From Lucinisca nassula (lineage: Eukaryota > Mollusca > Bivalvia > Lucinida > Lucinidae), in contig OY757010.1 of the NCBI GenBank assembly GCA_963580285.1, forward strand, positions 60,906,406-60,970,405: a DNA stretch of 64,000 bases. The letters run 5' to 3'. Shown piece by piece: positions 4,951-59,063 of this stretch. The translations under genes were made by a program, and so were the position numbers. A model generated the notes under the pieces. That model saw only the letters and a list, made by a program, of their open reading frames with translations. It did no database searches and had not been told where the DNA came from. Position 1 is the first letter of the stretch; each line of letters starts with the position of its first letter.

Positions 4951-5417
4951 TTAATTGTTCGCCAATACCTGTTCTAACTGACGCTAATTGGATTATTTGG
5001 TTATAATGTGTGAACTAACAATTGGCGCCTGGTTTAACCTGGTTTTAAATAAATTTTAACAACTTAAAGCTCTATTTTTTTTTTAATTATGAATTTTTAA
5101 GGGAAAAAAAAAAAAAAGGATCCACGGCGCAACCACGATAGATTGGACCGCAAAATATCGGAATGTGATATATTGGAGCTCTACTGTAACAAACAGTGAT
5201 ATAATGGGTTTAAGTGTGAAAGAATTTCAGCAGCCTTAATATGTAGATTGAAAAATTTATCTTGAGAGCTTGTGACACCAAATACTTATCCTTTTTTCTT
5301 TGATGCTCCTAGCAAAAATTGAAGATATCAACATTTTATTCTTCATCCATTTGTAAGTCAAGCCATATTTTTCTGTTTTCAAATATTTTTTTTTCTGAAA
5401 CTTTGAGGATCACTGTA

Positions 5418-5630
5418 TTAACCCTTCTCTTGCTGAATATTCAGTTTAGCCACACCCATTTCTGACTTTGAACCAATCAGATAACTCAATGTAATTTATT
5501 CCTACAAAGCCATAAACTGAATGTCAAACAGTGTAGATCCTGATCAGATGGCTTCTTCAGAAGCCATCTGATCTGGATCTACACTGTTTCCAAAGATAGG
5601 GGTTGTCATGAACAGCATGATAAGAGTTAA
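5418..5630. mobile_element. TTAACCC MITE family a
   Basis: TTAACCCTTCTCTTGCTGAA to AACAGCATGATAAGAGTTAA with the core hairpin GTGTAGATCCTGATCAGATG / CATCTGATCTGGATCTACAC in the middle. TTAA at both ends and a CCC start fit piggyBac-type target choice. Other copies: 18098-18246, 18337-18546, 21850-22040, 22869-23068, 25399-25611, 38633-38815, 43650-43853, 44235-44405. Confidence 0.8.
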
Positions 5631-5858
5631 CCCATTGCAGGCAGAAAACCCCTATAGGGGTACCTTGGCATACAGTGCAGACCCAGATCAGATGCCGCAG
5701 AACGCGGCATCTGATCAGGGCCTGCACTATTTGCTAACAGAATTTTCCATTAAAAAGTAGAATAAAAACAAAATAATAGGCCTACCACCACTTATTTTGA
5801 CAAATGGACTTGTCCAACATACAGCAATGGTCGAGCCCACTAGCATACAATGGGTTAA
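5627..5858. mobile_element. TTAACCC MITE family e, abutting family a
   Basis: Left end TTAACCCATTGCAGGC, right end GCATACAATGGGTTAA. It shares the single TTAA at 5627-5630 with the neighbouring family a copy. The core hairpin has the same outer arm (CAGTGCAGACC, GATCAGATG) but a different centre (CCGCAGAACGCGG). A second copy is at 42723-42952. Confidence 0.75.
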
Positions 5859-6098: not shown

Positions 6099-6590
6099 AT
6101 TTAATCCCTATCCTGCTGAATAAATTAATTTATCAAACCCATTTCTTACTATCAGCCAACCAAACTACTTGATACAATAATTTTCATTCAATGTAACAAT
6201 ATGAATGACAAACAGTGTAGATCCTGATCAGATGGCTTTGGTAGCCATCTGATCTAGATTTACAGTTTGCAAAGGTAGGGGATATCATTACGATAACACA
6301 CTCGTGCGACATAGTGTATTTTTTCACGTCTCCAAAAATGGCTACTTTTCTGATGAAAGTCTGTGATATTTTTCTTATTTATACCGCAAACATAGGCTGT
6401 AGGTACTCGTTGGCACCACCTCATTGAGGCGGTTCTAACGAGTACCCACAACTAATGTCTTGGAGGAGGAATAAGAAAAATAATGTACACCCCCGTAAAC
6501 CCAGTTTTCTCTATATAAACTGGGGTTTAGAGGGGTGTTCATTTCATGGACTTGTTCACGTGATGTTGTGTTCAGCAGGACAAGGGTTAA
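6099..6590. mobile_element. Family a MITE split by a second element
   Basis: The left half at 6099-6288 contains the usual core; the right end TTCAGCAGGACAAGGGTTAA is at 6571-6590. Between them (about 6289-6560) lies the GTTATCG...AATGAACACCCC element, also found at about 47735-48000 and 48675-48960. The whole composite begins 22 bp after the host gene's stop codon. Confidence 0.7.
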
Positions 6591-7121: not shown

Positions 7122-10100
7122 CTGTAAATTACATATTAACCCTTTTTATACCAAGTGGAATCTTCCACCTTATATATAGCACAAGTCCATTTCAACATTT
7201 AAGGGTGTCAGGTTGTGTTTTCTTGAAATTTAAGTTGGAAAATGGCTGAACTTTATCATGCAAACAGTGGAGGTCTGATCTGGGCCTGCACTGTTTGCCA
7301 GGGTACCCATTTTGGGGTTTCCAGTACAAAATGGGTTTTTGTTTTGTTTGATTTGAGGTTTAACGTCCCCGTCAACACTGTAAAGGTCATTTTGGAGATG
7401 TTGCTTCCAATTTTGTGGGACTTTTACCCGACATTGAAATGAAATGACATCTCAAGCCCTGTCGCCCAATGAAATTTAGCATGGATGGTCCGCCTCACAC
7501 CATGGTTGTTGGTCAGGCTTAGATCCTGTAAGCGGTTTACCAGTACTAGTGTGCGGGCCGGATTCAGCTCTGCGTGGAAGCATCGTGCAGCCCATATATT
7601 TCTTCAAGCCCCTATGGGCGGGGGCGGTGTACAAAATGGGTTAAGATGCAGCATGAGCAGCCATCTTTGTAAAAAAAAAAAAAAATATAGAAACTTATTC
7701 AATTGAAATGACTGACCACAAACTACATGTGTAACAGTTTTACTGTCAGTTAACCCATTTTGTACCAGAAACCCCAAAACGGGTATTTGGCAAACAGTCA
7801 GCAATTTTCCAAATCAGTTTAGAAGAAAACAACCTGACACCCCTAAATTTTGAAATGGACTTGTGCTATATATAAACCTAGGCTGTGGTGGCCTCTGCTG
7901 TGCAGTCAACTCTCTCCTCTAGCCAAGAGTCAATCTAAATTCCCAGTGTCAAACAGTCAAGTTAACTCTATAGCCAACATTTGAAGTTCAAAATAGCAGT
8001 TAAGGGTAATGGTATTTTCATGCCTATTTCGGCCCCCGCCCATAGGGGCTTGAAGAAATATATGGGCTGCATGATGCTTCCACGCAGAGCTGAATCCGGC
8101 CCGCACACTAGTGCTGGTAAACCGCTTAGAGGATCTAAGCCTGTCCAGGAACCGCGGTGCGAGGCGGACCTTCCATGCTAATAAACCATATTGGTTTCAT
8201 TGGGCGACAGGGCTTGAGAAGTCATTTCATCTCAATGTCAGGTAAAAGTCCCACAAAATTGGAAGCAACATCTCCAAAATGACCTTTACAGTGCTGACGG
8301 GGACGTTAAACCTCAAATCAAACAAACAAACAATGTTCATGCCTACCAAAACTACCTCAAAATTACCATTTTGTGATCATAAATTATTGCATATACCAGT
8401 GATCGACTGGCATGTACAAATGATCAATTTACATATACCAATGATTGATTTGCACCTACCAATGACTAATTTGCATATACCAATGATTGAAATGATTGAT
8501 TTGCATATACCAATGGTTGATTTGCATAGACCAATGATTGATTTGCATATACACTCGGACCTTGTTATAGCACGATTCGTTACAGCACGAATTTGGATAT
8601 AACACGGTTTTGGTTTGGACCCCAACAAACATTAATAAATATTAGCCAAGGATTGTATCGGGTTTTAAGCACAACAACTTTATTTTCCTCTCACCTTTGA
8701 CTGCGGTAATACGGTAGCTAACACAGTAGCTAACACGGTTTATAACGGTATTTTTTTATATTTATTGCAGGCCTCCAGCAGAGTTGAATATACAGTATAT
8801 AAACTTGTTTAGCTTGACACGCATGATAAACATGAACTGCCATCTGCACAATCAAAAGTTTTGGCTTAGTGAGTGAGATAAAGAGATTAAAGAATTCACT
8901 TACACAACGGGAAAAAAAATATTTATCACGCTCTGTTAAGGATCACTGCTCAGCAGAATGCAGACGATGTGATCGGTCAACTGCAATAAAACTCATTTTC
9001 TAGAGCCGCATGTAAAAGAAAGTCAGATTTATTCCAGCTTAAAAGCAAATGATAAAACATATTCAAGATCGATTTTCGCGGTAAAATAATCATTCAAAGA
9101 CCATGTGCGCCATTAAAAATCGTTTCAAATGGCTAAAATATTAAGGGTAAGACATTTCAAGGGAAGTAATTCAAATTTCTTGTAAGCGTTGATCATTGTC
9201 CGGTTCCACACTAACCCGGTAATTTCACCATTGGAATATATTAACGGTACTGTAGTTCGGTATGGTTTCGGACGCTCAGTTACAACAAAGTTAGCCGGGA
9301 ACCAGCTATCAAAATGGCGTCATACTCGCTGTCAGATCGGACGATTTCTGGATATAAAACATGGTTTATCAGCTGGTTTCGATTAAAGTGACCTGTTTGA
9401 CTTGATGGGCCATGGTATTTACTGCCATTGATTAGTTCTAAACACATTTTAGTCGGGAAATACGGTCATTAACCGGACCGCACATCATCTTGTTTGGGAA
9501 ACAATTGATCACCATTGTGTCAATGTTGATCTGTGACAAATACGGTCGGCGTTTATAACACGATTCGGTTAACTAACACGGTCCATTGGTTGGACCCGGA
9601 GTTCCGTGTTATAACGAGGTTGAGGTGTACCTATGAAATGTTAGCAAAAACCAATGATCAGTCACCGTATCTGAGCCAAGCCCAACTATTTAAACCTTTT
9701 GTAATAGGAGACTAGCTTTTTTACTAAGCCAGAACCTTTACTTGATACTGTGTTTGTCAAACAACTATGTTTAATACATACATGCAAAAATGCGGCCCCC
9801 ACCCATCGGGCTTGAAGAAATAGATGGGCTGCATGATGCTTCCACGCAGAGCTGAAATCCGACCGCACACAAGTACTGGTAAACCCAGACAGGATCTAAG
9901 CTCGCCCAGGCAAAGCGGTGCGAGTCAGACTATATATCTATCTTCTGATACTGCATCGGTCACATTTGACCATTACCGCAGGTGTATATTACATACACTC
10001 CAGGTTTTGCAGGATGAAAGCCTACACAGTAATCATGTAATTACAGTAGGGATCTTTAACCTGCACAGGGGATGGTTCTCCCTGCACAGGGGGCCTCCAG

Positions 10101-13100: not shown

Positions 13101-16100
13101 AGAGAATCTTCTCTGTGAAAAGTCCATTCAATTAAATCATTAAGCTTTTCTTTTATAAGATTATGAGGAAGTGTAGTGTAAAGAGTGGAAAAATTGTAGG
13201 TAGACAGACTAGAAGCACGAAAATGTCTAGATTTCAATTTATTTAAAACCTCATTCGAATTTTTTATAGACCAAAACAGATTTCTTCCTGATCTTTCAAA
13301 GACTTTATCACAATATTTAATTACATGCGTTTTAATAGCAGTAAGACAGGAAGTTAATAATTTAGAAAGTTCAGTGGTAGTGCAAGAGCTAGAATTTGCA
13401 ATAAACCGTGCTTTGTAAGGTTTTTTATGAAGTTTTGGTAACCAGTATAGCGTAGGAAGCTTGTCTTGGCCTTCGTTAACACACACAGCAAACTTGGTGG
13501 CTGAAAGACAAACATGTTTATCTACTATAACTCTCTCTTCAGCTAAAGGCTGAAGTTCATAGGCCATAGTACCACCAAGCTCCTGCTTAAGCGTGTTAAC
13601 ATAGTGGAGCCGTCACACAACGACGACGTTGTTAGCGGCCTTGTCTGCAGGGGCCAAAACAAACTTCTTATGAAATTCTTGAATACCTAGTTTAAGATGA
13701 CATAAAGACGTCTTGGGCTTAGGAGGTAATAAGTTAAAGGTTTACCCTGCATATAGAAGTCTATGTAAAAACCTGCTTCCTCCTGATCACCAGTCAGACG
13801 CGCATCTGACTGAGCTACTGAGGCCGGCATTGTTCACAACTAGCAGTGTCCTTTGTTAACCCATATATGCCTAGCATCCATTTTGTGGGACATTGGCAAA
13901 CAGTGTAGACCGCAAATCAGACACTGCAGTACGTGGCATCCGATCTAGGCCTACACTGTTTGCATAAAGTACATACATTTTTGTTCAATTTACAACAAAC
14001 AAAAAACCTGACATGCCTTTAATTGGAAATGAACCACTCCATTAAAGCAGGTGCAACAAAAACTATACACATTTTTTATTCAGGAAAAATATCCATACAT
14101 ACCATGATAAGTATTTGTTTATATTGTTTGTATTACATTGTACTTGTTAAAACAGTTACCATTTTGATCACTAACGAGTTTGTTAAGCTAATGAGGCTTC
14201 AACCCATTTAGTACCAGAAACCCCAAAATGGGTACCCTAGCAAACAGTGCTGGCCCAGATCAGATGCCGCAGAATGCGGCGTCTGATCAGGGCCTACACT
14301 GTTTGTAATAGAAATCGGCCATTTTCCAAATAAATTTTGATGAAAACACAATCTGACACCCCAAAAATTTTGAAATGGACTCATGCCATATATAAGGAGG
14401 AAGATTCCATGTGGTACAACTGGGCCCTGATGTTTCAATCAGAAAAACCACAGTATCAAGTCCCCCAAACACCAAGGTCATATAGAGACAGGACCTCTGC
14501 TGAAAGTCTCATCCAAAAGATTGAAGGAGAGTGGGATTGAACATGGCCTCCTGACCAGTTTACAGGGCAATTGGTTTGTCAACTGCACCATGCATGGTTT
14601 CTACTCAAGATTACAAATTTGTAACCAGAGTCCTTGTCTAGGCCAGGAGGGCATAAACTATATTCATGCTCAGCTTTTGTGAGCATGGAATTTATCCTGC
14701 TTGTAAATATTGCTCCTAAATATTAAAATGTTAATTTTGTTTGTTTGTGTTGAAGTTTAATGGCCCAGTCAACACTATTAAGGTCATTTTTGAGCTGGTT
14801 AGTCTACCTATCCACACTTTCCTGCTAAGGCTTATAAGTAAGTGGTTAACCAGTACAGAGCACATTCTTTCACCAGAAGCTGACAACTGCCCTTCTTGAA
14901 TCAGGGGATGGGAGAGAATGACCCTAGAAAAGATTTCATGATCAATCTCCATGAAAAAATGTTGCCGACCCCGGCAGGTATCGAACCTGCATCCTCCTGG
15001 TTACCAGTCAGACATGCATCTGACTGAGCTACCGAGGCCGGCAAAAATGCCAATGAGAGAGAGAGAGCAGGGAGGGAGGAAGGATCCTAATTAGATGCAA
15101 ATATGGTGTCTATTCATTTTTTTCCATTTGCAGCATGCTAACTGTCAAGGTCATAAAGAAAGCAAACAAATACTATTTACAGATATCTGCTGTTATTGCC
15201 TTCCAATGTCCATTTCAGTAACATTCCATTCTGCGTACAGCTACACTGCAGGATAGCAAAAGAATTCCGCATTCTGTCATTTGACCAATCAGCATGCTCG
15301 ACTACCACAATGTCATCTTTGAACATCTTCTCTTTTTCTCTTAGTTCATCTCTGCGAACCCGTCTCAGTGCTGCTAGATTGGACTCCGTTGTTTTACCTC
15401 CGCCTTTGAAAACAATTTGAGAATCTTCCATTAGTGCATGTACTAAATTTAGACAACATCTCAACTCTTGAGATGGAAGACAGATTGAAACTGAGGCTTT
15501 GCCTCAGTTTCAATCTGCCTGCCATTTCAAGTACAGTTGCACTTCAATGGCTCAAACATGTTTTGAATTTTGAAAATCTGTTTGATATTGGGGTAGTTTG
15601 AGCCACTGAGGGGTACTCACAGCACCAACTCAAGAGGAACAAACAAGAGGGCCCAGAGGGCTCTGGTTCGCTCACCTGATCCAATGTATAACAAGTGGGC
15701 CCCGGGCAGGGTCAATTTTGGCCCCAGGGCTATAATTTGAACAATCTTGGTAGAGGTCCACAAGATGAAGCTTCATATCGAATATGAAAGACCTGGGATT
15801 TCTGGTTTCAGAGAAGAAGATTTTAAAGGTTTACCCTGCATATAGAAGTCTATGTAAAACAAGATTTTCCCTATATAAGTCTATGTTAAACCAAAGGGCC
15901 CCGGAGCAGGGGCATTTTTGGCCCAAGGGCTATAATTTGAACAATCTTGGTAGAGGTCCACTAGCTGAAGCTTCATAACAAATATCAAAGACCTTATAAG
16001 CCTTTTGTTTCAGAGAAGATGATTTTTAAAGATTTTCCCTATATAAGTCTATGTAAAACCAAAGGGCCACATGGCGGAGGCATTTTTGGTCTCAGGGCTA

Positions 16101-19100
16101 TAATTTGAACAATCTTTATAGAGGTCCACTAGCTGAAGCTTCATAACAAATATCGAAGACCTAAGCCTTGTGGTTTCAAAGAAGAAGATTTTTCAAGATT
16201 TTCCCTATATACGTCTATGTAAAACCAAAGGGCCCCGGAGCGGCGGCATTTTTGGCCCTAGGGCTATAATTTGAACAATCTTGGTAGAGGTCCACAAGAT
16301 GAAGCTTCATACCAAATATCAAAGACCTGGGCCTTGCAGTTTCAGAGAAGTTTTTTTCAAGATTTTCCCTATATAAGCCTATGTAAAACAAAAGGGCCCT
16401 GGTGCGGGGGCATTTTTGGCCCCAGCACTATAATTTGAATAATCTTGGTAGGGGTCCACTAGATAAAGCTTCATACCAAATATCAAAGACCTGGGCCTTG
16501 CGGTTTCAGAGAAGAAGATTTTTCAAGATTTTCCCTATATAAGCCCATGTAAAACCAAAGGGCCCCCGTGTGTGTGTGTGTGTGTGTGGGGGGGGGGGCA
16601 TTTTTAGCTCCAGCACTATAATTTGAACAATCTTGGTAGGGGTCCACTAGATGAAGCTGCATACCAAATATCAAAGACCTGGGCCTTGCGGTTTCAGAGA
16701 AGAAGATTTTTAAAGATTTTCCCTATATAAGCCTATGTAAAACCAAAGGGCCCCCGTGCGGGGGCATTTTTAGATCCAGCACTATAATTTGAACAATCTT
16801 GGTAGGGGTCCACTAGATAAAGCTTCATACCAAATATCAAAGACCTGGGCCTTGTGGTTTCAGAGAAGAAGATTTTTAAAGATTTTCCCTATATTAGCCC
16901 ATGTAAAACCAAAGGGCCCCCGTACGGGGGCATTTTTGGCCCCAGCACTATAATTTGAACAATCTTGGTAGGGGTCCACTAGATGAAGCTTCATACCAAA
17001 TATCAAAGACCTGGGCCTTGCGGTTTCAGAGAAGAAGATTTTTCAAGATTTTCCCTATATAAGCCCATGTAAAACCAAAGGGCCCTCGTGCGGGGGCATT
17101 TTTAGCTCCAGCACTATAATTTGAACAATCTTGGTAGGGGTCCACTAGATGAAGCTTCATACCAAATATCAAAGACCTGGGCCTTGCGGTTTCAGAGAAA
17201 AAGATTTTTCAAGATTTTCCCTATATAAGCCCATGTAAAACCAAAGGGCCCCCGTGCGGGGGCATTTTTAGCTCCAGCACTATACAGTAGAACTTCGATC
17301 GCTCGAACACCGATAGCTCGAATACCATGGCTAAGTCGAACACGTTTTTGAGTCCCTAGAGAATTCCTTTACATATAAATAGTGATGGAAACATTCAGGA
17401 AGTTTTGTTTTTTATCTTGCTAATGTATGCTGTGTATACTCATTAGAATCGCCTCAATGAGGCGATTCTAATGAGTACACACAACATAAATTTATAATAA
17501 AGAAAACTCAGTAGCTATTTCCAAATCTCCAGGATCGCGCCCTCAATGGCACTAACAATAACCCTCCTTGGCTCGCACTACCGCTGTCTCGAACAAATTT
17601 TCATGGTCCCAAAAGGGTTCGAGCCATCGAAGTTCGACTGTAATTTGAACAATCTTGGTAGGGGTCCACTAGATGAAGCTTTATACCAAATATCAAAGAC
17701 CTGGGCCTTGCGGTTTCAGAGAAGAAGATTTTTTAAGTTTGCGGTGAAAAAAATCTAATTTTGGCTACTGTGACCTATATGTGCAACGGACCGGACCCAT
17801 TTGAACAACTTTGAAAGGGGACCACCTAAGGATCAGTCCTGTGAAGTTTGGTCAAAATACGATCAGTGGTTTAGGAGGAGATGTCATTTGAAGAAAAGTT
17901 TACGGACGCACGCACGGACGCACGACGGACAAAAAGTGATCCCAAAAGCTCACCTTGTCACTACGTGACAGGTGAGCTAAAAAGTGTTATGGATGGACAG
18001 ACATACAGATGGACAGACACAGGAAGGCCAGCCCTATAACCCCCACTCTGCTTTGTGGTTGGGGATTAACAATATGAATAACTTTCTGGATTTCCTTTTA
18101 ACCCTTATCCTGCTGAATAAATCATTTTTTCTGCTGGATATCAACCAAACAGTGTAGATCCTGATCAGATGGCTTGAAGAAGCCATCTGATCTGGGTCTA
18201 CACTGTTTGCAAAGACAGGTGTTGTAGTGTTCAGCGGGACAATGGCTTTCTATAAAATAAAGGTATTTGTATGTTCTAATGTGTTCTTATTTGTAACATA
18301 TTATTTTCAAGATGTAAGTAAGTAAGAACATCAACATAACCCTTATCCTGCTGCTCACGACCACCCCTATCTTTGCAAACAGGGTAGATCCTGATCAGAT
18401 GGCTTCTGAGAAGCCATCTGATCAGGATCTACATTGTTTCACATTCGGATTGTGAATTTATAGCAATAAAATTACATCAAGTAATCTGATTGGTTCAAAA
18501 TCAAAAATGGGTGTGGCTAAATTAATTATGCAGCTGGATAAGGATTAAATTATCCCTCATTATTTCTAATGTGGAACAATGGAAAGAATTCATAGGGACT
18601 CATGAATGGGTTTGGTAAACGAGTCAGCAGATTTTGAGTTATTGAAATATCTCTGTTCTTGAAAATCTCGACTCTGATACCAATGATTTTTTATATTCAT
18701 TATCTAGTTTACTCTGACTTCACTGAAAGCTCACTCAGACTTATTCACGGTTTTCAAAAAAGTGAAGTTGGCAAACCACAGTTTAACATGATGGTGGAAC
18801 CCTGAGCACAGACGGAAACCACCAAACCTGGTTGGGTTACCACTGCCACAACACAGGTCGAGTTAAACATTGTTGTTGAATGATATTGCAATAAAAAAAC
18901 TCCCAGAAAAAGGTGAGAAAAGAAATAAATGGGCCCATGATAAAAGGGTTATCATTGTATAGATGATCAGTGCCTCTGCTGCTTGCCAACATGTATACGA
19001 TACCCTCAGGTATCCATGTAGTCTGATCACAGTGTTTGCTGCATGCTATAGGGATGGTCCGAGTCCCAAAATTTCTTCACGCGATTTGTTTGTTTGTTTG

Positions 19101-22100
19101 AATTGAGGTTTAAATCCCCGTCAACACTGTAAAGGTCATTTTGGATACATTGCTTCCAATTTTGTGAGACTTTACCCTACAATGTGATGAAATGACATAT
19201 CAAGCCCTGCCGCCCAATGAAACCAATAGGGTTTATATGCATGTACATTCCAACAATGCAGCACTTTGCCTGGGCCGATTTACATGTAGACCTCCTAAAA
19301 GGTTTACTAGTACTCATGTGCAGTCGGTTTCAGCTCTGCATGGAAGCATCATGCAGCCCAATCTATTTCTCCAAGCCACAACGGGTGGCAGCTATTCATG
19401 CGATCACAGAAGTTTATATTCTGACCAAGTTTGTGTTCACCTTGATTACACACTTTGCTCAGCACAGGTGATCGAAGACCTCTTTTCAGACCTTGGTTTC
19501 ATGGGCCAGTTGTTCAAAGCATCGTTAGCTTAACCAGCTCGTTAGTGGTCATATTATTAACTGTCCTAGCAAGTACAATATCTAATTTTTTTTTATTTTT
19601 GTTTTATTTTGCTGAAAAAAAATGTGCATTTGCAAAAGCTGCTGACATTTTTTTTCAGCAAAAATATTAGCATATTAGACATATTAAATGATCAAAGTTT
19701 TAACAAAACATTAACTAATGATATCATCACTTTTGAACAACTGGCCCCAGGTCTCATCTTGATAACCAAAGAAATTCCTGCATAACAAAGCATGTGGGTC
19801 ATGTTAGCCTCAACACCAGGAGCTAGTTGTTCAAAGCAGCTTAACAAGCTCGTTACTGGTCAAATTGATAACTATTTTAGCAAGTTCAATATAAAAAAAT
19901 TTTGGTATTTTTGCTGAAAAAAAGTGAAGAGCTTTTGCATTTGAAGTTTCTTAAGGCCAGATCAAATACTTTTTTGAAGTTATAGCCAAGGTGAAGGTTT
20001 TTCGGAACGACGACAACGATGACAACAACGACAACGCAGATCTGGAGTGACTACAATGGCTCGAAAGTTTTTTTTCTTAAAACAAAAAAAAAAACAAAAA
20101 AAAAAACAGAAAGCTAAAAATTATCCTATAATTAGCCTTGTTACTGATTTTTATCTGCAGCAATATTAATTTTATACCTTTTTTACCCTAAGTATTCTGA
20201 CACCTAAACACCAAAACATCATACCATACTCAATGTCAAGTAAAAGTCCCACAAAACTGGAAGCAATGTCTCCAAAATGACCTATACAGTGTTGATGGGG
20301 ACGGTAAACCTCAAATCAAACAAAACCATACTTGTTCTAAAATTTGAACAAGTACAATTTATTACCCGATGTTGTGTTTAACCCATTTTGTACCGGAAAC
20401 CCCAAAACAGGTAGTTGGCAAACAGTGCAGGCCCAGATCAGACGCCACAGAATGCGGCATCTGATCAGGGCCTACACTGTTTGCAAAAAGTTAAGCCATT
20501 TTCCAAACAAATTTTGAAGAAAACAGAATCTGACAACCCTAAAATTTGAGATGGACTCATGCTATATATGAGGAGGATTCCATTTGGTACAAAATGGGTT
20601 AAAAATAGCTGAATGAGGGGCAAACAGTGCAGACCCAGACGAGATGCCACAATTTACAGTCTGTTCAGGCCTGCTTGTCCAAATACATATGGTAAGAGGG
20701 ACTCCAAATGCACAAACCTTTGATAATGATATCGGCGATATCTTTGGCCTTCAGTTCTTCCGCACTTATAACAGCATGTTGTGTAAGTAGGGTGTCAACA
20801 TCCGTTGTTGTCAGTAATTCCCAGCCCTTATTGTAGGCTTCTTTCTGGGCTGGACCCCTTTTTCTACCTTCAGCTGTATAAAAATAATTGTATAAAAATA
20901 ATAATTCAGCTGTTCTTACTGGGCGTACTTGATTCACTGTTCCATTTGCACCGATCTGTGTTCTGTTCAATCAAGTAGTTGTCACGTGGTATGGTGCAGT
21001 GTTCTGGTGCTACACTTTTTGACACTACTCTTGACTAGGTGTGAAGTGCCCGGATGATGGAGCAGTGCACCAGCCTCGTTTTCAAATTCAAGGCATTTTG
21101 CATTTGTAGTTTCCTACCGGAATCAAAATGCGTAGATAAATGTTGAAAACGTTTCAGATCATAAAAAAACATTGATTTAAATACCTTTCAAACTGCATTC
21201 ACTAAAAGAGTATGCTTTAAATTCTTAGTCACAGTTCTGCACCACACTTGATTCACCGGAGCAAGGTTCGGTCAAAGTTCGGCACCATACTTGATTCACC
21301 GGAGCAAGGTCCAGTGCAATGTTCCATGTTTTGTTCGATTTTGGGATACATTAATTACTTGAACGGCTCATCTTTTGAAACTGAATGATTTTGAATGATT
21401 TCAGTCAGGTAGCTAATAAAATAAACAAATGCATGTAAGAAAATAGACTAAGCGTCGTATGTAGGGAAGCTGTGTATGTTCTGTGCTTGATTCAAAACAC
21501 GACACACTCCTACGTCATGGGAACATTGCAATGCACTTGATTTAAAAACAGAACAGTCACGTGACAGTGCAACGTTCAGGAACAGTAAGAACAGCTGAAT
21601 CAAGTACGCCCACTGTTCCAGCACGTTGCACTGTCATGTGACTGTCCTGTTTTTAAATCAAGTGCAATGCAATGTTCCCATGACGTAAGAGTGGGTCGTC
21701 TGTTTTGAATCAAGCACAGAACATACACAGCTTCCCTACATATAGTGCATAGTCTAATTTCTTAAATGCGTTTGTTTATTTTACTAGCTACCTGACTGAA
21801 ATCATTCAAAATCATTCAGTTTCAAAAGATGAGCCATTCAAATAATTAACCCTTGTTCTGCTGAGCCCGGATATGCCTTTTCTTTGAAACATTGATGGTT
21901 TCTGAAGAAGCCATCTGATCAGGATCTACATTGTTTGTCATTCAGATTGTGAATTTGTTGCAATAATTTGCATCAAGTAATCTGATTGGCTGATAATTGG
22001 TAGTGGGTGTGGCATATATGAATATTCAGCAGGACAAGGGTTAATGTATCCAAAAATCAAACAAAACATGGAACATTGCACTGAACCTTGCTCTGGTGAA

Positions 22101-25100: not shown

Positions 25101-28100
25101 CTAGACTTACCTGAAGTAATAAAGATGTTATCAAGATAAAGTTCACAGCAGAGACAGTCCTCTTCGTCCCTTTTAGTATCCAGCTTCCTGTACACTGCCA
25201 TAGGTGCAATACCAAACTGCATTGATGTAACATCTATAGGGTTGATGTTGCTGTCCTTGAATGGCATGGCTTTTAGAGACTTGAGTAACTCTGCAAACTT
25301 CTCTTTCTTGGACATTGCTGATATATTTGGGCCCTTGCTGGCCTTTGAGGATTTTTTCACCCGCGATACCTGTAGTTCTTCCTACAAAATTAATACAGTT
25401 AACCCTTGTCCTGCTGAACCAGGATATGCCTTATCTTTCAAATAATGAAGATCCAGATCAGATGGCTTCTGAAGAAGCCATCTGATCAGGATCTTCATTG
25501 TTTGTCATTCAGTTTGTAAATTTGTCGCAATAATTTGCATCAAGTAATCTGACTGGTTGATAATCAGTTGTGGGTGTGGCATATTTAAATATTCAGCAGG
25601 TCAAGGGTTAAGACGAGCTAAAATTAAGGCTAATTCCTCTTTTCTAACATTACTGTAAAAATCCTAAAAAGTTCGGGCACCTTGAGAACTTGCTGTAATT
25701 CTCCAAAAATGTTAACAAATTTGTTTCATGATCTAGCATGGAGTCCAGAAAGTGCAGACAATGAAAAACAGTGTATACCTGATCACACTGCTCCTGAAGG
25801 GGCAGTCTGATCTGGGTCGGCACTGTTGGTGTGGGCCTATCTGTCACAACACTTAGGATCATTACAGTATTTAAAAGTTTCAGTTTTTCTCTCTTCATGT
25901 TTTTGACACCTTTGTCATACAGTAAGAGACCAGCTCTGGGACTGTTCAAAAGTGGTCTTAAAGATCACTTTTGAACAGTCCCAAAGGTGGTCTTAATACA
26001 GGAACTTTACTGTATTTAATTCAGCCAATTTTATGGTGAAAGGGACAAATGTAAAAATAAAACTCCCTGTTCAAACATGCATGCGCAAACACTTCAAAGT
26101 GGCTGATACGCCAAATATACTTTCTTATGGAGGGCTGATACTGTCAAAAAATTTTACCATATAATGATCCTAAGTACTGGGACAGCTAGGCCTTAGCAAA
26201 GAGGGGCCATTTTTTCAAAACTAGCGACACCATTAGTTAATGTATCGTTAAAACTTTGATCATTTATTATGGCAAATATGCTAAAATTTTTGATGAAAAA
26301 ATGTGAGCAGCTTTTGCATTTGCAAAAGCTGCTCACATTTTTTCAGCAAAAATACCAAAAATGTAAATATTAAACTTGCCAGAACAGTTGACAATATGAC
26401 CACTAACAAGCTTAAGCTAACGATGCTTTGAACAACTGGACCCAGTTCATTTTGCACCTTTTGCACTCCTTGCAGGATAGTTAAACAAATTTGTTAACAT
26501 TTTAGGAGAATTACAGCAAGTCCTAAAGGTGTCCCAATTTTTAGAATTTTAACGGTATTTGCAAACAAAACAAGCAAATTTGGAATTAACTACGAAAACA
26601 ATTTCAAATGAAACAGCTCAACATAAACAAATAGAACAATAACTTTTCAAATGATAAAATCAAAGATAGCAAATAAAATAAGAAATGCTATCAAATTGTC
26701 ATAACAAAAGAATAAGGGACAACCCTATCAAATTTTCTTAACAGAAGAATACTGGACATCCATGAAAGCCAGCAAGACACAATGAGACACTGGTTGATTC
26801 TTAGCTGTCAAGATTCCAAGAAACAATGGCTCTTAGCTCTAAAGACTCACTGAGATATTGTTACCTGTAAAAACACTGTTTCTTAGCTTTCTAGACTCCA
26901 TGATACACTGATTCTTAGCTGTCAAAACTCCTTGATACCCTGTTTCTAAGCTTTCAAGACTCTATGAGACACTGACTGATAGCTGTCAAAACTCTTTGAT
27001 ACCCTGTTTCTTAGCTTTCAAGACTCTATGAGACACTGACTGATAGCTGTCAAAACTCCATGATACCCTGTTTCTTAGCTTTCAAGACTCTATGAGACAC
27101 TGACTGATAGCTGTCAAAACTCCATGATACCCTGTTTCTTAGCTTTCAAGATTCTATGAGACACTGATTCATAGCTGTCAAAACTCCATGATACCCTGTT
27201 TCTTAGCTTTCAAGACTCTTATGAGATGCCGATTCTTAGCTGTTGAGACATTCATAGCTGTCAAGACTCCACAAGATACTGATTCATAGGTGTCAAGACT
27301 CAGTGGGACCATGTTTCTTAGATATCTGGACCCAGTGAGACACAGAACCTTGATAATTTTTGCAGATTTCCATTGACACTGATTCTTAGCTGTCAAGACT
27401 CTGTGGGACCCTGTGTATATATGTAAGATAACTTACAAATTGTCATACCGATATTTGCCTAAATCATTTAACTACTTCTGTATTTGTAAGATTATTGTGG
27501 TGTTTGTATATGTTTTATGCGAGATGTGCTAAAATTTATTTGGCAATCTGAATGAAATTTGAATTGAATTCCCACTGTGATAAATTTTCATAATCATGCA
27601 TACCTCTGCCTCTTCTTCTTCTTCTACGTCCGGTACAGGAATCAACAGCTCTTCTATCGACTTAGTCTTTAAATTCTCCATTGCACTGCCATACGTCAGC
27701 CTTTTACAAATTTTCTTAGACGAGGCTAAACCTCTCCCTATGATAATGTTGTTAATCTCCAGAGCACCCTTGTAAGTAACGCGCCCAGTCTTGTGCTTTA
27801 TGGCATCCATCACATACTGATGCCTGATCACACATTGGACTGCCGTGATGGCTTGTTCTATCCGTGATATATCACTGTCAACTGTAGGGGTATTATTCTG
27901 AAAACAGACATTCAATGATGGATACGCAATCTTCTCTCCTGAACGGCAACATTGTCAACAATGCAGAGGACCTGCGCTATAACGACAGTATTTGTTCCCT
28001 ATTATTGTGCCGTTATAATGAATTTCCGTTATAAAGAATGCCATTTAGGAGTACAATAGGTTATAAAAGGTCAATTCCACATCATTACTCCAAGAAACAA

Positions 28101-31100
28101 ATGTTATAGACATTTGTTAGAATCGCCTTGGTGAGGTGATTCTAACAAATATCTATAACATTTGTTTCTTGGAGTATTAAATTACAAGACTCTTTCATGA
28201 CTATGGATTCGATTTCCAACCGAAGACCACATTGCTAGTAATTATGGCTAAGACTTCAGCTAAGAATTCATTCCATTGAGACTGTCGTTATAACGAGTTT
28301 TGCCGTTATAACGAATGTCAGTATAAGGAGGGCTGACGTTATCTTTTCACACCTTATCATTAAGGTACCATACTCACCCTGAGTATTTGGACACCTCAAC
28401 TCCTTACCATACTTGTTCTAAAATTTGAGCAAGTACAATTTACTTCCGTGTTGAGTCTAAAAATAGCTGGATGAGTGGCAAATAGTGTAGAGCCTGATAA
28501 CATGCCATGTTCTGCAGCCTCTCATCTGGGTCTGCACTATTTGCTCAGACCTTTCTGTCCAAATAATGTACATACTGTAAATACAGTATACTCTAACAAA
28601 GAAAGAAAACAAATTCTACTTTTCAAGGAAAGAATTTGTTCCAGAGGAGCCAATTTTTTCCTTGAAAAGTAGAATCTTTTTGAAGGAATCAGGAAAACAC
28701 ACAGGAAATGCAAAAAGTTGTAAAATAAAATACAGATCAAACTTTGGTGAAGTTGATGTTGCACCTGCCCCCACCTGCACCATCCAGGAAAAGTAATGTT
28801 TATTTCAGGTACAAGAAATAAACCCACAGTCTATATGTTTGAGGTCAGAAAATAACTAAGTTAATAAAGACCACTTTTGAACAGCCCCCTTGGTGGTCTT
28901 ATAATAGGTATTTTACTGTACATTCTCTTTCTTGGAAAGTGTGGAGGAGAGCATTCTGTTACGACATCAGGTTTAATGATATAGAGTTTGAAATATAATT
29001 CCCCGTCCATTCTGCTTGCCATTCAGACATGATGAGTGTGTTGATAAATGGTTTAAAATTGTTAAAAGGGATTTTAAAAACAGGCAGATCAATATTGAGT
29101 GATTCCTTTGCTTTCTTGTCAGCATACTCATTGCCGGCAATTTTTAGTGTGTTAGAACTGAAATAGATCAGCTCTTGTGTGTGACTTGTTGAAAAAATAA
29201 ATCAAAGTTTGTCAGTCAGTTTTAAGTAGACAAATCAGTCATCCTATGTGATCATGATTTGATCTACTTTACAACTGACCTCCAAACTGTGATTTGCAAC
29301 GGTATATTCTGCAATATATTATTGGAAATTCCAACACCAACATGTATTAAATGTTGTTTTTCATTTGGTTGACTTCTATTTCATCCAGTCGACTGTTGTT
29401 TTTGGCAAAACATCTACGTTTTACAAACCTTACAAATAAATAAGTGCAATAGAAAGAGGATAACTGCATGAGCAGTGTCATCTGGGGAGGTACATTGACA
29501 GATCTAAGGGTACAAAAGTAGTGTTGGTGATATGCTTGATGAGCTGGAATGACCATCGTTGGAGGCCCGTCGTAAGCAGTCCTCTTTCACCTTCTTTTAT
29601 AAGATACACTCTGATACAGTGTCTCTTAATAAAGATAAATACTTGACCCCTGTGACTAGTTCAACTCGAATAAAGGCATCAAAATTAAACAACAGTCAAT
29701 ATTGCAGGTACCAGGCTTATAGTGATGCCCTGAATAATTCCTTCTTCCCTAGAACTATTCCTCAGAGAAACAGTCTACCCTCCTCTGTGGTAAATGCCAA
29801 AACTGCAGAGGAGTTCAAAGCCCACATGGTAAAGATTGGGCTTCAGAGGTATGCGTTTGTGTATACCTCTGTAAGCAGAATGTAAAGTTTTAAGAACTAA
29901 TCCAGTGATTTTCTTTTTTTGCTGAATTCTAAATTTAGCCCATCACCTAACTTAGGTAATGGCCATGTATCACCGACTCAGTATATGAAGATAGATAGAT
30001 GTATGTATGTTTTATGGCTTCAATGGTGTCACAGCAGAACAAAATAGCTGACCATATATACCTGATGTACCTCCTTAAGTGACAATTGTGCACAATTATT
30101 TGCTAACAGTACCTTTAGTTTATCAATGATAATCTGGAATGCCTCGCCAATATCCTGTCCCATCCAGTCCCGAGACCTGGTGTCCTTCTTCCGGTTCTCA
30201 GCTTCTTCTTCTCGCTCTAACTCTTCTCTGTAATGACAGCAATTTACAGTAAAACCTATACTAACAGTCAGCTCTGTTCAGCAGCCACCTCCGCTCAATA
30301 CAACCACCTCCCCTCAGTACAGCCACCTCCCCTCATTACAACCACCTCCCCTCAGTACAGCCACCTCTCCTCAGTACTCAGAATTATTCCACGAAAACAT
30401 TTCTCTATATATTTAACCTCTGCTGAACTCCAATTCTCTCTTCCAGTCGGTAGCCACTTGACTAAATCTAAATTTTCTCTATTAAGGGGAATTGGTACAC
30501 CTTCAGGGGAGGCAACTCCTTCAAAAGTATTTTTGTCTTCTATGTCAATAGGAGTCAACTCTAAGGAGCAAATTCTTTCCTTTAAGAGTAGACCCTTTTC
30601 TCCATGGTATAGAGTTGATAGAAAAGCAAATAGGAAGTACTGAAAGTTGTTTCCCTTTGAAAAATGGCAGAAAAAAATCTGCTTTTCTGCCAGGTGTATC
30701 CATTCCCCTTAAGTTGTCATACTTGCAATTTGGTTAACCCTCATTGGGTCAAACTTTCCCTACCTCAAACAAATTGTTGTGGTCCCAAAGGTGTTTGAGC
30801 CATTGAAATGTAGTCTGATTGTATACCACAACCTCTTTATAACACTATTAACGGGGTCCAAAGCAGAAACTGTGTTAGTTACACCATACTGTTATAGTCA
30901 AACAAAAAAGTAAAGATTATATAGAAAAATGACCATTTACGGTCATTTTTCTATATATTCTATACATTTTTTGGATCCATCTTCATACTGTGTTATATCC
31001 AAACTGCCCTATTACAAACAGTGTTAGAGGCCTCCTTGGAGTAGTGGTTATGCTACTCACCTTGTAAACCAGGGGTCACAGGATCGATCCCGGGCTTCTC

Positions 31101-37100: not shown

Positions 37101-40100
37101 CTTCAATGGCTCACACACCGATAGCTCATTCACCATGGCTAGTCGGAACTTGTTCTTTAGTCCCTCAGATTGCTCCAGGAAACATATACAATAGAACTTC
37201 AATGGCTCACAAACCGATGGCTCATTCACCATGGCTAGTCAGAACTTGTTCTTTAGTTCCTCAGATTGCTCCAGGTAACATATACAGTAGAACTGCAATG
37301 GCTCACACACCGATGGCTCATTCACCATGGCTAGTCAGAACTTGTTCTTTAGTTCCTCAGATTGCTCCAGGTAACTGATACAGTAGAACTTCAATGGCTC
37401 ACACACCGATAGCTCATTCACCATGGCTAGTCGGGACTTGTTCTTTAGTCCCTCAGATTGCTCCAGGTAACATATACAGTAGAACTTCGATGGCTCAAAC
37501 ACCGATGGCTCGTTTACCATGGCTGAGTCGAACCAGTTTTTTGGTCCCTAGGGAATTCCTCTGCATAAGAAGTAGTGCGTGATGATAAAAGAGATTTTAA
37601 ACTTTTCTCATGCAAATGTATGTTGTGTGTACTCATTAGAATCGCCTCGATGAGGCGATTCTAATGAGTACACACAGCATACATTTTTATCATAGAACAT
37701 CGAAAACATTAATATCAACCCTGTTATGCCTCCTGACCGTAACCCTCAGTGGCTCGAACTACCCCTGTCTCAAACAGATGTTCGTGGTCCAAATGGTGTT
37801 CGAGCCATTAAAGTTCGACTGTATTTAGAAATAAATGTATTGTAAAAATCCTAAAAATTTGAACACCTTGAGGACTTGCAGTTATTCTCTAAACAGTTTT
37901 AACAAATTGTTTCACGATCCAGCAAGGAGTCCAAAAGGTGCAAGCAGACTGGCAAACAGTGTAGACCCTGATCAGACTGCTCCATTAGGAGCAGTCTGAT
38001 CTGGATCTGTACTGTTTGCTTAGGCCTATCTGTCCCAATACTCAGGAACATTACAGTAGGAGGTATTTTCTTATCTTAACATGAAAATGAATGTTGTATG
38101 TACTCATCAGAATTGCCTCGATGAGGCAATTCTAATGATTACACATAACATATGTAACTTTATAGGAGAGCAAGTTCGAGCCCATCTCGGGTCACATCTG
38201 AGACGCCAAGTTCTCCAACAGAAGGTCAGGTGTTTTTTCTCCGGGTACTCCAGTTTTTGCTCACCCCTGATTAATGATCGGCTCAATATATGTGGCTATA
38301 AAACCAAAACCAAACTACACCCATCTCGAACAATTTTTCATGGTTCCAAAGGTGTTTGAGGCATTCAAGTTTTCATATCTATAGGCTATTTTAGATTAAT
38401 AATTGTGATAATAATAATAATCAACTTTATTTATAGAGGGTAACACATTTAGTAAACTAGAGCTAATCTTTCATGTGGCCCTCTTTTCTTCCTCTTCCTG
38501 GGTAGAAACCAATACTAAGCAATGTGGATAAAGTCTCTTGCTCATGGAAACAACACTTGATGCTCGCAGGACTTGAACGGCTACCTCTCGATCTCAAAGC
38601 CAATTATTTACCCTTGCACCACAGCACTCCAACCTTTTCCTGCTGAATACACCCATTTCTGACTTTGAACCAATCAGATTATTTGATGTAAAATATGCCT
38701 ACAAATTCACAAACTGAATGTCAAACAGTGTAAATCCAGATCAGATGGCTCATCTGATCTGGATCTACACTATTTGCAAAGGTATGGTTGTTGTGAACAG
38801 CAGGATAACAGTAAACAAAGAAACAGATATCTTTTTATTTCTGTCAAGTTGTTTGTTTTAAAATCTAATTTGTAAAAGGATACAAAACTAAAATGTTTTC
38901 AGACGAAAACAATACCCCCGCACCCCCGCACCCCCCACACACACACCATAAATATAACTCAAACCAACCATTGGACCTTGAAAACTAGCCTTAGGTCACC
39001 AAAATCCTGGGTGGATACAAGCCATTTTGGCCAAAAACTGACAATTTTCAGGAGCCAGTGACCATATGAGGTCAAAATCACCTAAATCTGATCCAATCTT
39101 TGGCAATTTGTAATCTATGTTGTACGAAGTTTGACCAACATGCATCAATTCTTAATTAAGACAGGGTGCAGACAAGCCATTTTCTGCCAAAAATTGACAC
39201 TTTTCATCATTTTGATTATGAGATAGGGTGCATACAAGCCAAACTTGAAAGTGTATGGGGATCTGTGCCCTTAAAAAAAAAGGTCAAGGTCGACAAAGTC
39301 TAATCGCATCTTTGGTAGATTGTAAAAATATATTGTACTGAGTTTGACTAAATTTCATGAACTCGTTCACTGACAGTTTGGGGGTGGGGGTGGTGGGGTG
39401 CTGTTTCCTTGAAAAAAAAGGCAAAGGTGACCAAAATCTTATCAAATCTTTTGTAGGTTGCAATGATATATTGCGCCAAGTTTGACTAAATTTCATCAAT
39501 TCATTCATAGACAAGCCAAAATTGAAAGCTTTTTGGGGTCAGTGCCATGGAAAATAAAGTCAAGGTCACCAATATCTAATCAAATCTTTGGTAGCTTGTA
39601 ATGATATATGGTACCAAGTTTGACCAAATTTCATCAATTCGGTCATGAGACAGGGTGCAGACAAGCCATTTTTGGCCCGAATTTGAGTTTTGGGTGACCC
39701 TGGAGATGTAACCATGCAAGTTTGAACAGAATCCATCAACATGTTCAGGAGATATAGTGCTTCAAACAAGCTACTGACACTGATGCCAACCCAAACAGGA
39801 TCCACACCTTGGTGGGTGGGGTGGGGAGGACATAAATACATTCTTATCAAATCTACTAGAGCTGTCAGTGAAACTGACTAGGGCCCCGGCAGTGCCATCA
39901 GAGGAGTTGGATATTAAGATGAAAACAAAAGACGAAAAAAAGCCGATTTTTTGTTTTTCACAAGGCAATAACTCTCAAATGATTATAGCTAGAGTTAAGT
40001 AAGTTGCCATGAAATTGTTTAATGTTGCTGTGATCTTACGTTTTAAAGGTTGAAAATGATGCGTTTGAAGGTTTGTAAGTTATGAAGAAAAAACATGAAA

Positions 40101-58439: not shown

Positions 58440-59063
58440 CATATGCCCTCGCGCGCATTCTAGGCAGGTGTATTTTACATTCACTCCAGTCTTTGCAGGA
58501 TGAAAGCCTACACAGTAATCATGTAATTATGGTAGGGTTCTTTAACCTGCACAGGGGATGGTTCTCCCTGCACAGGGGGCCTCCGCCCATAGGGGCTTGA
58601 AGAAATATATGGGCTGCACGATGCTTCCACACAGAGCTGAATCCGGCCCGCACACTAGTACTAGTAAACCGCTTAGAGGATCTAAGCCTGTTCAGGAACC
58701 GCAGTGCGAGGCGGACCGTCCATGCCAATAAACCCTATAGGTTTCATTGGGCGACAGGGCTTGAGATGTCATTTCATCTCAATGTCGGGTAAAAGTCCCA
58801 CAAAATTGGAAGCAACGTCTCCAAAATGACCTTTACAGTGTTGACGGGAACGTTAAGCCTCAAATCAATCAAACAAACAAAAACAGGGGGCCTCCAGTTT
58901 ACATCCCGATCCGAAGGACGGTGCACTTTATGACATTCATCCCTGCAAATGATGTCAGTGGAGCGTGTTCGGACACCGAAATTTTATCGCCGCTGCCAGG
59001 GATCGAACCCTGGACCTCTAGCATCAGAGGCAAGTGCACTAACCACTGAGCTATCACGCTCCA
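58440..59063 (-). mobile_element. SINE-C with a nested SINE-B
   Basis: The tRNA-like head is at 58980-59063 on the minus strand (box A TAGCTCAGTGG, box B GGTTCGATCCC). A SINE-B (about 58585-58884, plus strand) sits inside, flanked by ACAGGGGGCCTCC on both sides. Confidence 0.88.

What the first reader, a model, noticed from the sequence alone, without database searches (positions are those of the whole stretch)
5418..5858. The same palindromic core arm sits inside several MITE families with different ends
The arm AAACAGTGYAGAYCC + GATCAGA recurs in families with different terminal repeats: a (CCTTATCCTGCTGAA), b (CCATTTTGTACCAG), e (CCATTGTATGCTAG), c (TACTGTAAAAATCCTAA) and d (ACCCTAAGTATT). 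Only the innermost 10-12 bp change by family. Seen about 25 times here. Shared ancestry of the cores with unrelated shells suggests that a palindrome module moves between transposons, or that gene conversion or strong selection keeps it. I know of no described mechanism that fits.
Basis: partly seen in the sequence, partly recalled or inferred. Interest (0 to 1): 0.75.

Follow-up and report, generated by a model that had tools for sequence, protein, structure and literature searches.

The report
One palindrome shared by many mini-transposons
Short jumping-gene relics in this animal genome, probably hundreds of thousands of them, carry the same 64-base mirror-image sequence near one end; it looks like an old, built-in and strongly conserved part of the elements that also occurs in a second kind of element with different ends, and not like a piece that hops freely between them.

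Summary
A 63-64 bp near-palindrome (arm AAACAGTGYAGRYCC-W-GATCAGA, variable inner 17-18 bp) occurs 32 times in the window and roughly 450,000 times genome-wide, extrapolated from 31 copies in 200 kb; the exact 15-mer arm has 244,548 matches against 7 for its reversed control. The five shells reduce to two classes: a, b, e (plus F4) are drifted versions of one TTAA-target element; c and d are subfamilies of one TA-target element. Flanks mostly stay together, core trees largely follow shells (7 changes, minimum 5, shuffled 26.6), and none of 137 shell halves showed a clean core-free site. In both classes the core starts about 34-43 bp from one end, mostly in one orientation (79 of 88 assigned cores), marked by an A.A mismatch (114,326 copies). 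Inner arms change in compensated pairs. Best reading: an ancestral, subterminal, oriented dyad kept by selection on active copies, in two transposon classes through deep ancestry or one transfer. A possible core/shell conflict (F5/F6, AU p=0.0475) leaves rare exchange open. No transposase partner is known: that search never ran.

The parts
5418..5630 (-). family a (F1) element, TTAA to TTAA, read on the minus strand: 41-bp short side, core, long side
   Evidence: Read by eye; F1 profile match 5407-5632
5526..5589 (-). 64-bp core of the family a element (inner arm TGGCTTC)
   Evidence: DNA fold -31 kcal/mol, z -13
5627..5858 (+). family e (F3) element, TTAA to TTAA, shares TTAA 5627-5630 with its neighbour
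   Evidence: Read by eye; family alignment
5670..5732 (+). 63-bp core of the family e element
14242..14304 (+). core in a family b (F2) shell
20420..20482 (+). core in a family b (F2) shell
43292..43354 (+). core in a family b (F2) shell
42847..42909 (-). core in a family e (F3) shell
13898..13961 (+). core in an F4 shell (TTAACCCATATATGCC end), read flipped relative to the other families
37838..38058 (-). family c (F5) element with TAC..RTA ends; core 37954-38017; outer ends approximate
28480..28542 (-). core in a family d (F6) shell
18333..18554 (+). family a (F1) element, core 18377-18439
   Evidence: F1 profile
25396..25619 (+). family a (F1) element, core 25440-25503
   Evidence: F1 profile
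43639..43859 (-). family a (F1) element, core 43751-43814
   Evidence: F1 profile
7750..7875 (+). family b (F2) copy without core: AAACAG of the left arm is left, the rest is deleted into the right flank, so a deletion and not an empty site
26162..26557 (+). family c (F5) copy whose core is broken by another palindrome-bearing MITE-like insert (palindrome 26286-26353)
6101..6590 (-). family a (F1) copy with core 6209-6266 and a long insert that carries a second, different palindrome (near 6395-6467) and a third (about 6488-6538, by eye)

Best explanation
The core is a built-in cis element of a large clan of about 205-230 bp non-autonomous DNA transposons, not a mobile module. Shown: in the TTAA class (a, b, e, F4) and the TA class (c, d) it lies roughly 34-43 bp from the short end, mostly in one orientation (F4 is mixed); shells and cores are largely inherited together; outer arms are nearly fixed while inner arms change in compensated pairs; the core-less copies seen are deletions, truncations or interruptions. 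Inferred: active copies need the dyad, most likely as a binding site for a dimeric protein (the transposase, or a host factor both classes exploit) next to the tip. Selection acts on the few copies that transpose, so each new wave of copies shows the same core while shells drift. The TTAA class looks like piggyBac-type MITEs: tip CCC, TTAA, and in b, e and part of F4 also a small palindrome near bp 17-33, where piggyBac's C-terminal domain dimer binds. The core would be an extra inner dyad. The TA class got the core by common descent with replaced ends, or by one old transfer.
For: Copy number: 244,548 exact arms against 7 control; 112 cores in about 336 kb, 31 of them in 200 kb of preset stretches. 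Position: TTAACCC + 34-36 nt + CAAACAGTG 52,134 times against 3 control (the main a subfamily, at 33 nt, is not in this count); of 75 near-complete cores 38 TTAACCC-like matches lie 37-46 bp from the A-arm side and 3 at that distance on the other side, with 11 matches at other distances on each side. TA class: of 10 extra copies fetched by their core-near flank, 10 have a recognisable core start and 9 an AATNATC-like stretch at the expected place near the tip, 5 with a TAC tip. Orientation: 79 of 88 assigned cores; 114,326 A.A cores against 7,425 in one of the two paired states, the other state not counted. Shells. Tree. Covariation: 69 cells changed on both sides against 29.9 shuffled, 0 of 500 as high; 12 of 28 pairs against 8.3, 1 of 500. 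Small palindrome: 15 of 29 TTAACCC-type ends have 4 or more pairs near bp 15-37 against 13.6% of shuffles. piggyBac precedent: passages of PMC7351741 and PMC11707139.
Against: No transposase with these ends was found: the whole-genome family search did not complete. Nine of 88 assigned cores read flipped, 5 of them F4. 24 of 112 cores fit none of F1-F6, so some cores sit in other or no shells, e.g. two cores flanking one unit in L027. The two classes share no clear shell sequence (103 and 28 of 300 shuffles as high; single nominal hits F2-F6 p about 0.03), so common descent across classes rests on position, orientation and length. A core/shell conflict exists (AU p=0.0475). One core (window 44686) has an F2-like left and an F6-like right side. 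Mismatched pairs show no strand bias (56 G.T against 63 A.C). The shuffle controls do not correct for relatedness of copies.
Confidence: 0.55

Rival explanations
1. Exchange: the inner core is copied between elements by ectopic gene conversion or template switching, using the near-identical outer arms as homology. Position and orientation are kept automatically, and shells and cores can then disagree.
For: Core tree joins F1 with F5 (99/97) and F6 with F2-F4, while shells join F5 with F6 (AU p=0.0475). F6 inner arm is 94% identical to F2 although their left sides are 51% identical.
Against: Labels otherwise track the tree (7 changes, minimum 5). F6 and F2-F4 may simply retain the ancestral inner arm; F1-F5 inner similarity is weak (728 of 20,000 palindrome-preserving shuffles as high). 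70 columns only, and the tested group was named after a first tree was seen.
Confidence: 0.2
2. Mobile palindrome: the core is itself a tiny element that inserted into several MITEs.
For: 24 of 112 cores fit none of the six shells; a tandem double core in L018.
Against: No clean empty shell among 137 shell halves, preferred position and orientation, no direct repeat at core edges in the consensus sequences (by eye; the flanks are inverted, GC..GC).
Confidence: 0.06
3. No selection: arm complementarity is renewed by hairpin-guided replication or repair, and the rest is founder effect of a few masters.
For: Centre deletions are common (14 of 75 paired rows are 46-53 bp), so the hairpin is unstable; many compensated changes lie in the inner arm.
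Against: The A.A mismatch persists in 114,326 exact copies, although arm copying through it would erase it; outer arms are 87-96% identical between all six families, whose left sides fall to 41%.
Confidence: 0.12
4. RNA hairpin: the core is kept as a transcript hairpin, for example a small-RNA precursor.
For: Pre-miRNA-like length; several below-threshold miRNA models hit these and other palindromes in the first 30 kb.
Against: No RNA family reached its gathering score at a core in the window; wobble pairs show no strand bias in 41 cores. No expression data were seen.
Confidence: 0.07

Closest known systems
MITE-like repeat 1 of the clam Lucina (Phacoides) pectinata haemoglobin genes (PMC4732748; section 17 read, other passages seen)
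   Same: 210 bp, imperfect inverted ends, a palindromic central segment of 77 bp (96%); a second repeat (92 bp, 68 bp self-complementary) shares a short segment with it; similar pieces reported in other molluscs. A half core plus a 43-bp e-like TTAA end (L051) lies on a contig of a bacterial bin whose label fits the P. pectinatus gill study.
   Different: The paper could not identify a target duplication, calls the palindrome central (here it is off-centre), and in the text seen does not treat it as a unit shared across classes. Its sequences are in figures that are not held, so identity with this core is untested.
piggyBac and piggyBat ends (PMC7351741, PMC11707139; passages)
   Same: TTAA target, asymmetric ends, subterminal palindromes bound by a transposase domain dimer (bp 17-33 in piggyBac).
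   Different: Their palindromes are 14-19 bp; this core is 63-64 bp and starts some 37-39 bp inside the tip.
Highly conserved domains of SINEs, e.g. V domain also in the MITE MER6 (PMC6887750; passages)
   Same: A conserved internal domain shared by elements with different ends.
   Different: Retroelement origin; about 120 bp; no 64-bp palindrome or fixed subterminal place in the passages seen.
pearl-type modular MITEs of bivalves (PMC5139131; passages)
   Same: Bivalve MITEs of modular build; a conserved palindrome near the repeat junction in DTC84.
   Different: Internal tandem repeats; no shared 64-bp palindrome in the passages seen.
Palindromic TTAA and TA elements of nematodes (PALTTAA, PALTA; recalled, no call)
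   Same: Palindromic short elements with TTAA or TA duplications.
   Different: Recalled only; not compared.

Membership tests
piggyBac-type MITE (TTAA class: a, b, e, F4) | TTAA target duplication at both ends | tested here: met
   TTAA at both ends of elements in the window and in the F1, F2, F3 alignments; no empty target sites compared, so duplication is inferred
piggyBac-type MITE (TTAA class: a, b, e, F4) | tip beginning CCY | tested here: met
   TTAACCC in consensus; that piggyBac tips begin so is recalled
piggyBac-type MITE (TTAA class: a, b, e, F4) | small subterminal palindrome near bp 17-33 | tested here: inconclusive
   15 of 29 ends with 4+ pairs against 13.6% of shuffles; of the 7 family a rows among them, 4 have only 2 pairs
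piggyBac-type MITE (TTAA class: a, b, e, F4) | a piggyBac transposase gene with the same ends in the genome | not tested
   PF13843 search asked repeatedly, never answered
Tc1/mariner-type MITE (TA class: c, d) | TA target duplication | tested here: inconclusive
   Both tips readable as TAC..RTA in 4 of 12 aligned rows, one tip or neither in the rest; no empty target sites compared
Tc1/mariner-type MITE (TA class: c, d) | ends shared with a mariner-type transposase | tested here: inconclusive
   The one mariner-type gene found in the window (45701-46480) has other ends; only 10 window ORFs scanned, rest of genome not searched
Lucina pectinata repeat 1 | 210-bp element with 77-bp palindromic centre | tested here: inconclusive
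   Elements of about 205-230 bp with palindromes of 63-64 bp that lie off-centre
Lucina pectinata repeat 1 | same sequence | not testable with these tools
   Sequences only in figures
Mobile module (own transposon) | clean empty sites or own target duplications | tested here: not met
   0 of 137 shell halves show a clean empty site (15 without a core read one by one); core edges judged by eye

The most novel reading that the evidence does not exclude
One oriented palindromic cassette serves as a shared cis element for two transposon classes with different target sites (TTAA and TA), keeping its distance from the tip and its orientation, so that two different transposases, or one host factor used by both, select the same 64-bp dyad; inner arms can be swapped between classes through the conserved outer arms.
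Probability: 0.3. Interest if true: 0.75.

Novelty: new variant of a known kind. Interest (0 to 1): 0.5.

Why it matters
Internal sequences of MITEs are usually treated as filler between the ends (general knowledge). Here an internal dyad is the best conserved part of perhaps 450,000 elements and is common to two target classes. If it is a binding site, it points to a factor that lets some MITEs explode in copy number, a long-open question; the genome offers a natural library of very many variants. It also warns repeat annotators: a shared palindrome can join unrelated shells into one family, or split one family by its ends.

Tried and rejected
Rejected: five unrelated shells; core as a free insert; RNA hairpin as the main reason (no strand bias; no Rfam family at threshold at a core in the window); the window's mariner-type gene as partner of c/d (other ends). 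Tried without yield: IMG/VR scan, 0 matches; GTDB scan, 1 contig; two literature searches with strings of the core, whose listings (19 papers; 15 of 29) showed no mollusc repeat paper; searches on MITE, palindrome and bivalve or mollusc terms, of which PMC4732748 was closest. These searches are the only basis for saying that I found no description of the shared core in print; subscription papers and figures are not covered, and only passages of most papers were seen. First clustering of flanks by BLAST chained neighbouring repeats into one group of 103 and was dropped. A first script printed far too much because of a slice error. The counts at other spacings (TTAACCCN{8,32}CAAACAGTG) and of one family b end did not complete.

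Full report
What is there. The reported stretch holds two complete elements that share one TTAA: a family a element on the minus strand (5418-5630) and a family e element on the plus strand (5627-5858), each with a core. The arm with up to 3 mismatches has 69 matches in the window against 6.4 expected. A profile built from 52 cores finds 112 cores in about 336 kb (354,450 bases held, less six overlapping loci): 32 in the window, 49 in the 3-kb loci picked by the arm itself, 31 in 200 kb of preset stretches. The last figure, free of selection by the arm, gives about 0.155 per kb, or about 450,000 in 2.93 Gb; this is an extrapolation from 31 copies on five contigs. Exact arms number 122,227 + 122,321 against 4 + 3 for the reversed pattern.

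Anatomy of the core. The core is 63-64 bp with 28 pairs. Outer arms are almost fixed; the inner arm differs by family: TGGCTTC (a), mostly CGCCGCA or TGCCGCA (b, e, d, F4), CTGCTCC (c). Position 16 holds A on both arms (44 of 52 cores, counting T/T as the other strand), which gives the palindrome a direction. Genome-wide 114,326 cores match the A/A pattern, 7,425 one of the two paired patterns (the other was not counted) and none the controls. On 35 cores that I chose (32 distinct), 12 of 28 pairs changed on both sides (shuffled 8.3, 1 of 500 as high), 69 cells against 29.9 (0 of 500); the slid controls reach at most 27 cells. The shuffles ignore relatedness. Five cores fold as DNA hairpins with z from -9 to -13. 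Mismatches show no strand preference, 56 G.T against 63 A.C in 41 cores. Centre deletions are common: 14 of 75 paired rows are 46-53 bp.

Anatomy of the shells. I name six: F1 = a, F2 = b, F3 = e, F4 (TTAACCCATATATGCC end), F5 = c, F6 = d. Left sides are about 34-43 bp, right sides about 108-124 bp (the F4 right end was not fixed). Consensus strings were written by eye. With tips and the last two bases cut off, F2, F3 and a lucinid end are alike (p 0.0005 each), F4 is like them by global alignment (left p 0.001 to 0.07; F2-F4 right p 0.001) but not by local alignment on the left, and F5 is like F6 (left 0.0005, right 0.001). F1 is only weakly like F3 (0.014 global, 0.0055 local). F5/F6 show nothing clear with the others, apart from single nominal values for F2-F6 (0.03) among many pairs. 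With 7 F1-type and 17 F2/F3/F4-type rows, most of them picked by eye, F1 is significantly like that group (0 of 300), while the TA class is not like either (103 and 28 of 300). So there are two classes: TTAA (a, b, e, F4) and TA (c, d). The TA ends rest on 12 aligned copies of F5: both tips are readable as TAC..RTA in 4 of them (L052, L058, two window copies); L054 has no recognisable tip. I did not see empty target sites for either class.

Position and orientation. In 75 near-complete cores, 38 TTAACCC-like matches lie 37-46 bp from the A-arm side and 3 at that distance on the other side; 11 more lie elsewhere on each side, on the other side mostly 79-80 bp away. Genome-wide, TTAACCC + 34-36 nt + CAAACAGTG occurs 26,133 + 26,001 times against 1 + 2 for the reversed pattern. 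The main a subfamily has 33 nt and lies outside that count; counts at other spacings did not complete. In the TA class the core starts 34-41 bp from the end. Of 88 cores assigned to a shell, 79 read in the expected direction and 9 flipped: 5 F4 (against 6 F4 unflipped) and 4 others, at least two of them weak or decayed.

Does the core move? Assignment of the 112 cores by left and right flank leaves 24 with neither side; of the 88 others, 7 have sides from two families. Five of these are between related shells or near the threshold; F4/F5 in L036 has a right side just above it; window 44686 has an F2-like left and an F6-like right side clearly above it, though by eye its right side also resembles F2. 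Of 137 shell halves found by BLAST, 121 lie beside a core or arm, 1 at a locus edge and 15 do not. I read the 15: two in L007 have a decayed arm, the others are truncated, interrupted or deleted, or weak matches; none is a clean junction of left and right shell. A core tree of 46 rows (43 of the 112 cores and 3 of the 10 later F5 copies, chosen for full length) needs 7 label changes (minimum 5, shuffled mean 26.6, none of 200 as low); F2 and F3 cores are not separated in it. An earlier tree of 68 rows needed 11 with unassigned rows included (shuffled mean 38.6), 9 without. Both use 70 columns and are weakly resolved. One conflict: F1 with F5 (99/97) and F6 with F2-F4, while shells join F5 and F6; AU p 0.0475, and the group was tested after the first tree was seen, so this is not strong. 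F6's inner arm is 94% identical to that of F2, which may be ancestral.

Likely mechanism. Shown: preferred place, preferred direction, outer sequence conserved, inner pairing conserved. Inferred: a dyad needed by the copies that transpose. piggyBac and piggyBat have subterminal palindromes bound by a dimer of C-terminal domains, at bp 17-33 in piggyBac (passages). In b, e and part of F4 a small palindrome lies near that place (15 of 29 ends with 4 or more pairs, shuffles 13.6%; related copies, so the excess is inflated); the core is a second, larger dyad further in. Which protein binds is unknown. How two target classes came to hold it is unknown: old common descent with new ends, or one transfer.

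Other species. An exact scan of GTDB genomes found one contig of a Spirochaeta bin; its first 89 bases are half a core plus a 43-bp e-like TTAA end. The bin label (LUC14.., P3) fits the entry P3, 2014, Spirochaeta-like, in Table 1 of the Phacoides pectinatus gill study, whose main text does not print the label itself; that this DNA is the clam's is inference. In that same clam, under the name Lucina pectinata, a 210-bp MITE-like repeat with a 77-bp palindromic centre was reported in 2016. This is the closest prior description found; its letters could not be compared. The genome searched here is unnamed; its size is near the 2.90 Gb given for Sinohyriopsis cumingii in a search listing, which proves nothing.

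A second case. Another palindrome (arm GTACTCRTTAGAAYCGCCTC) has 61 matches in the same DNA: 44 beside one flank type, 7 beside another, 10 unassigned. Here the centre is shared and the outer arms differ. Sharing of palindromes between flank types is thus not unique to this core in this genome.

Noticed in passing
window 6403, 17432, 28117, 37625, 38096, 47834, 48780 (starts): A second shared palindrome (GTACTCRTTAGAAYCGCCTC arm) occurs in at least two flank types; 61 matches in about 336 kb.
   Followed up: partly
L007:1360-2290: Period-68 array of F4-type ends and core half-arms, mirrored on both sides, like elements nested in each other's core centre.
   Followed up: partly
window 10668, 23671, 33116, 45020 (palindrome starts): A third palindrome family (CTCTTAAAGGAAAGAATTTGCTCCT) seems to lie inside a MITE-like element with GGGGAATGGATAC-like ends (by eye).
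   Followed up: partly
window 45635-46932: Mariner-type element: DDE gene fragment 45701-46480 between 38-bp inverted ends, 97% complementary.
   Followed up: partly
window 15860-17284 and 34776-36027: Two arrays of a similar 166-bp tandem unit about 17 kb apart.
   Followed up: no
window 36514-37530: 96-bp unit repeated 10.6 times just before a copy of the second palindrome, with wording similar to that element's flank.
   Followed up: no
window 22071-22584 and 21228-21310: 43-bp tandem unit, 11.9 copies, and about 1.9 copies of what looks like its reverse complement nearby.
   Followed up: no
window 10199-10256 and 58997-59053 (-): tRNA-like matches above the Rfam threshold, possibly SINE heads.
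   Followed up: no
L018:1490-1625: Two cores in tandem within one d-type (F6) shell.
   Followed up: no
window 31116-32009: Reverse transcriptase domain (RVT_1, E 3e-32).
   Followed up: no
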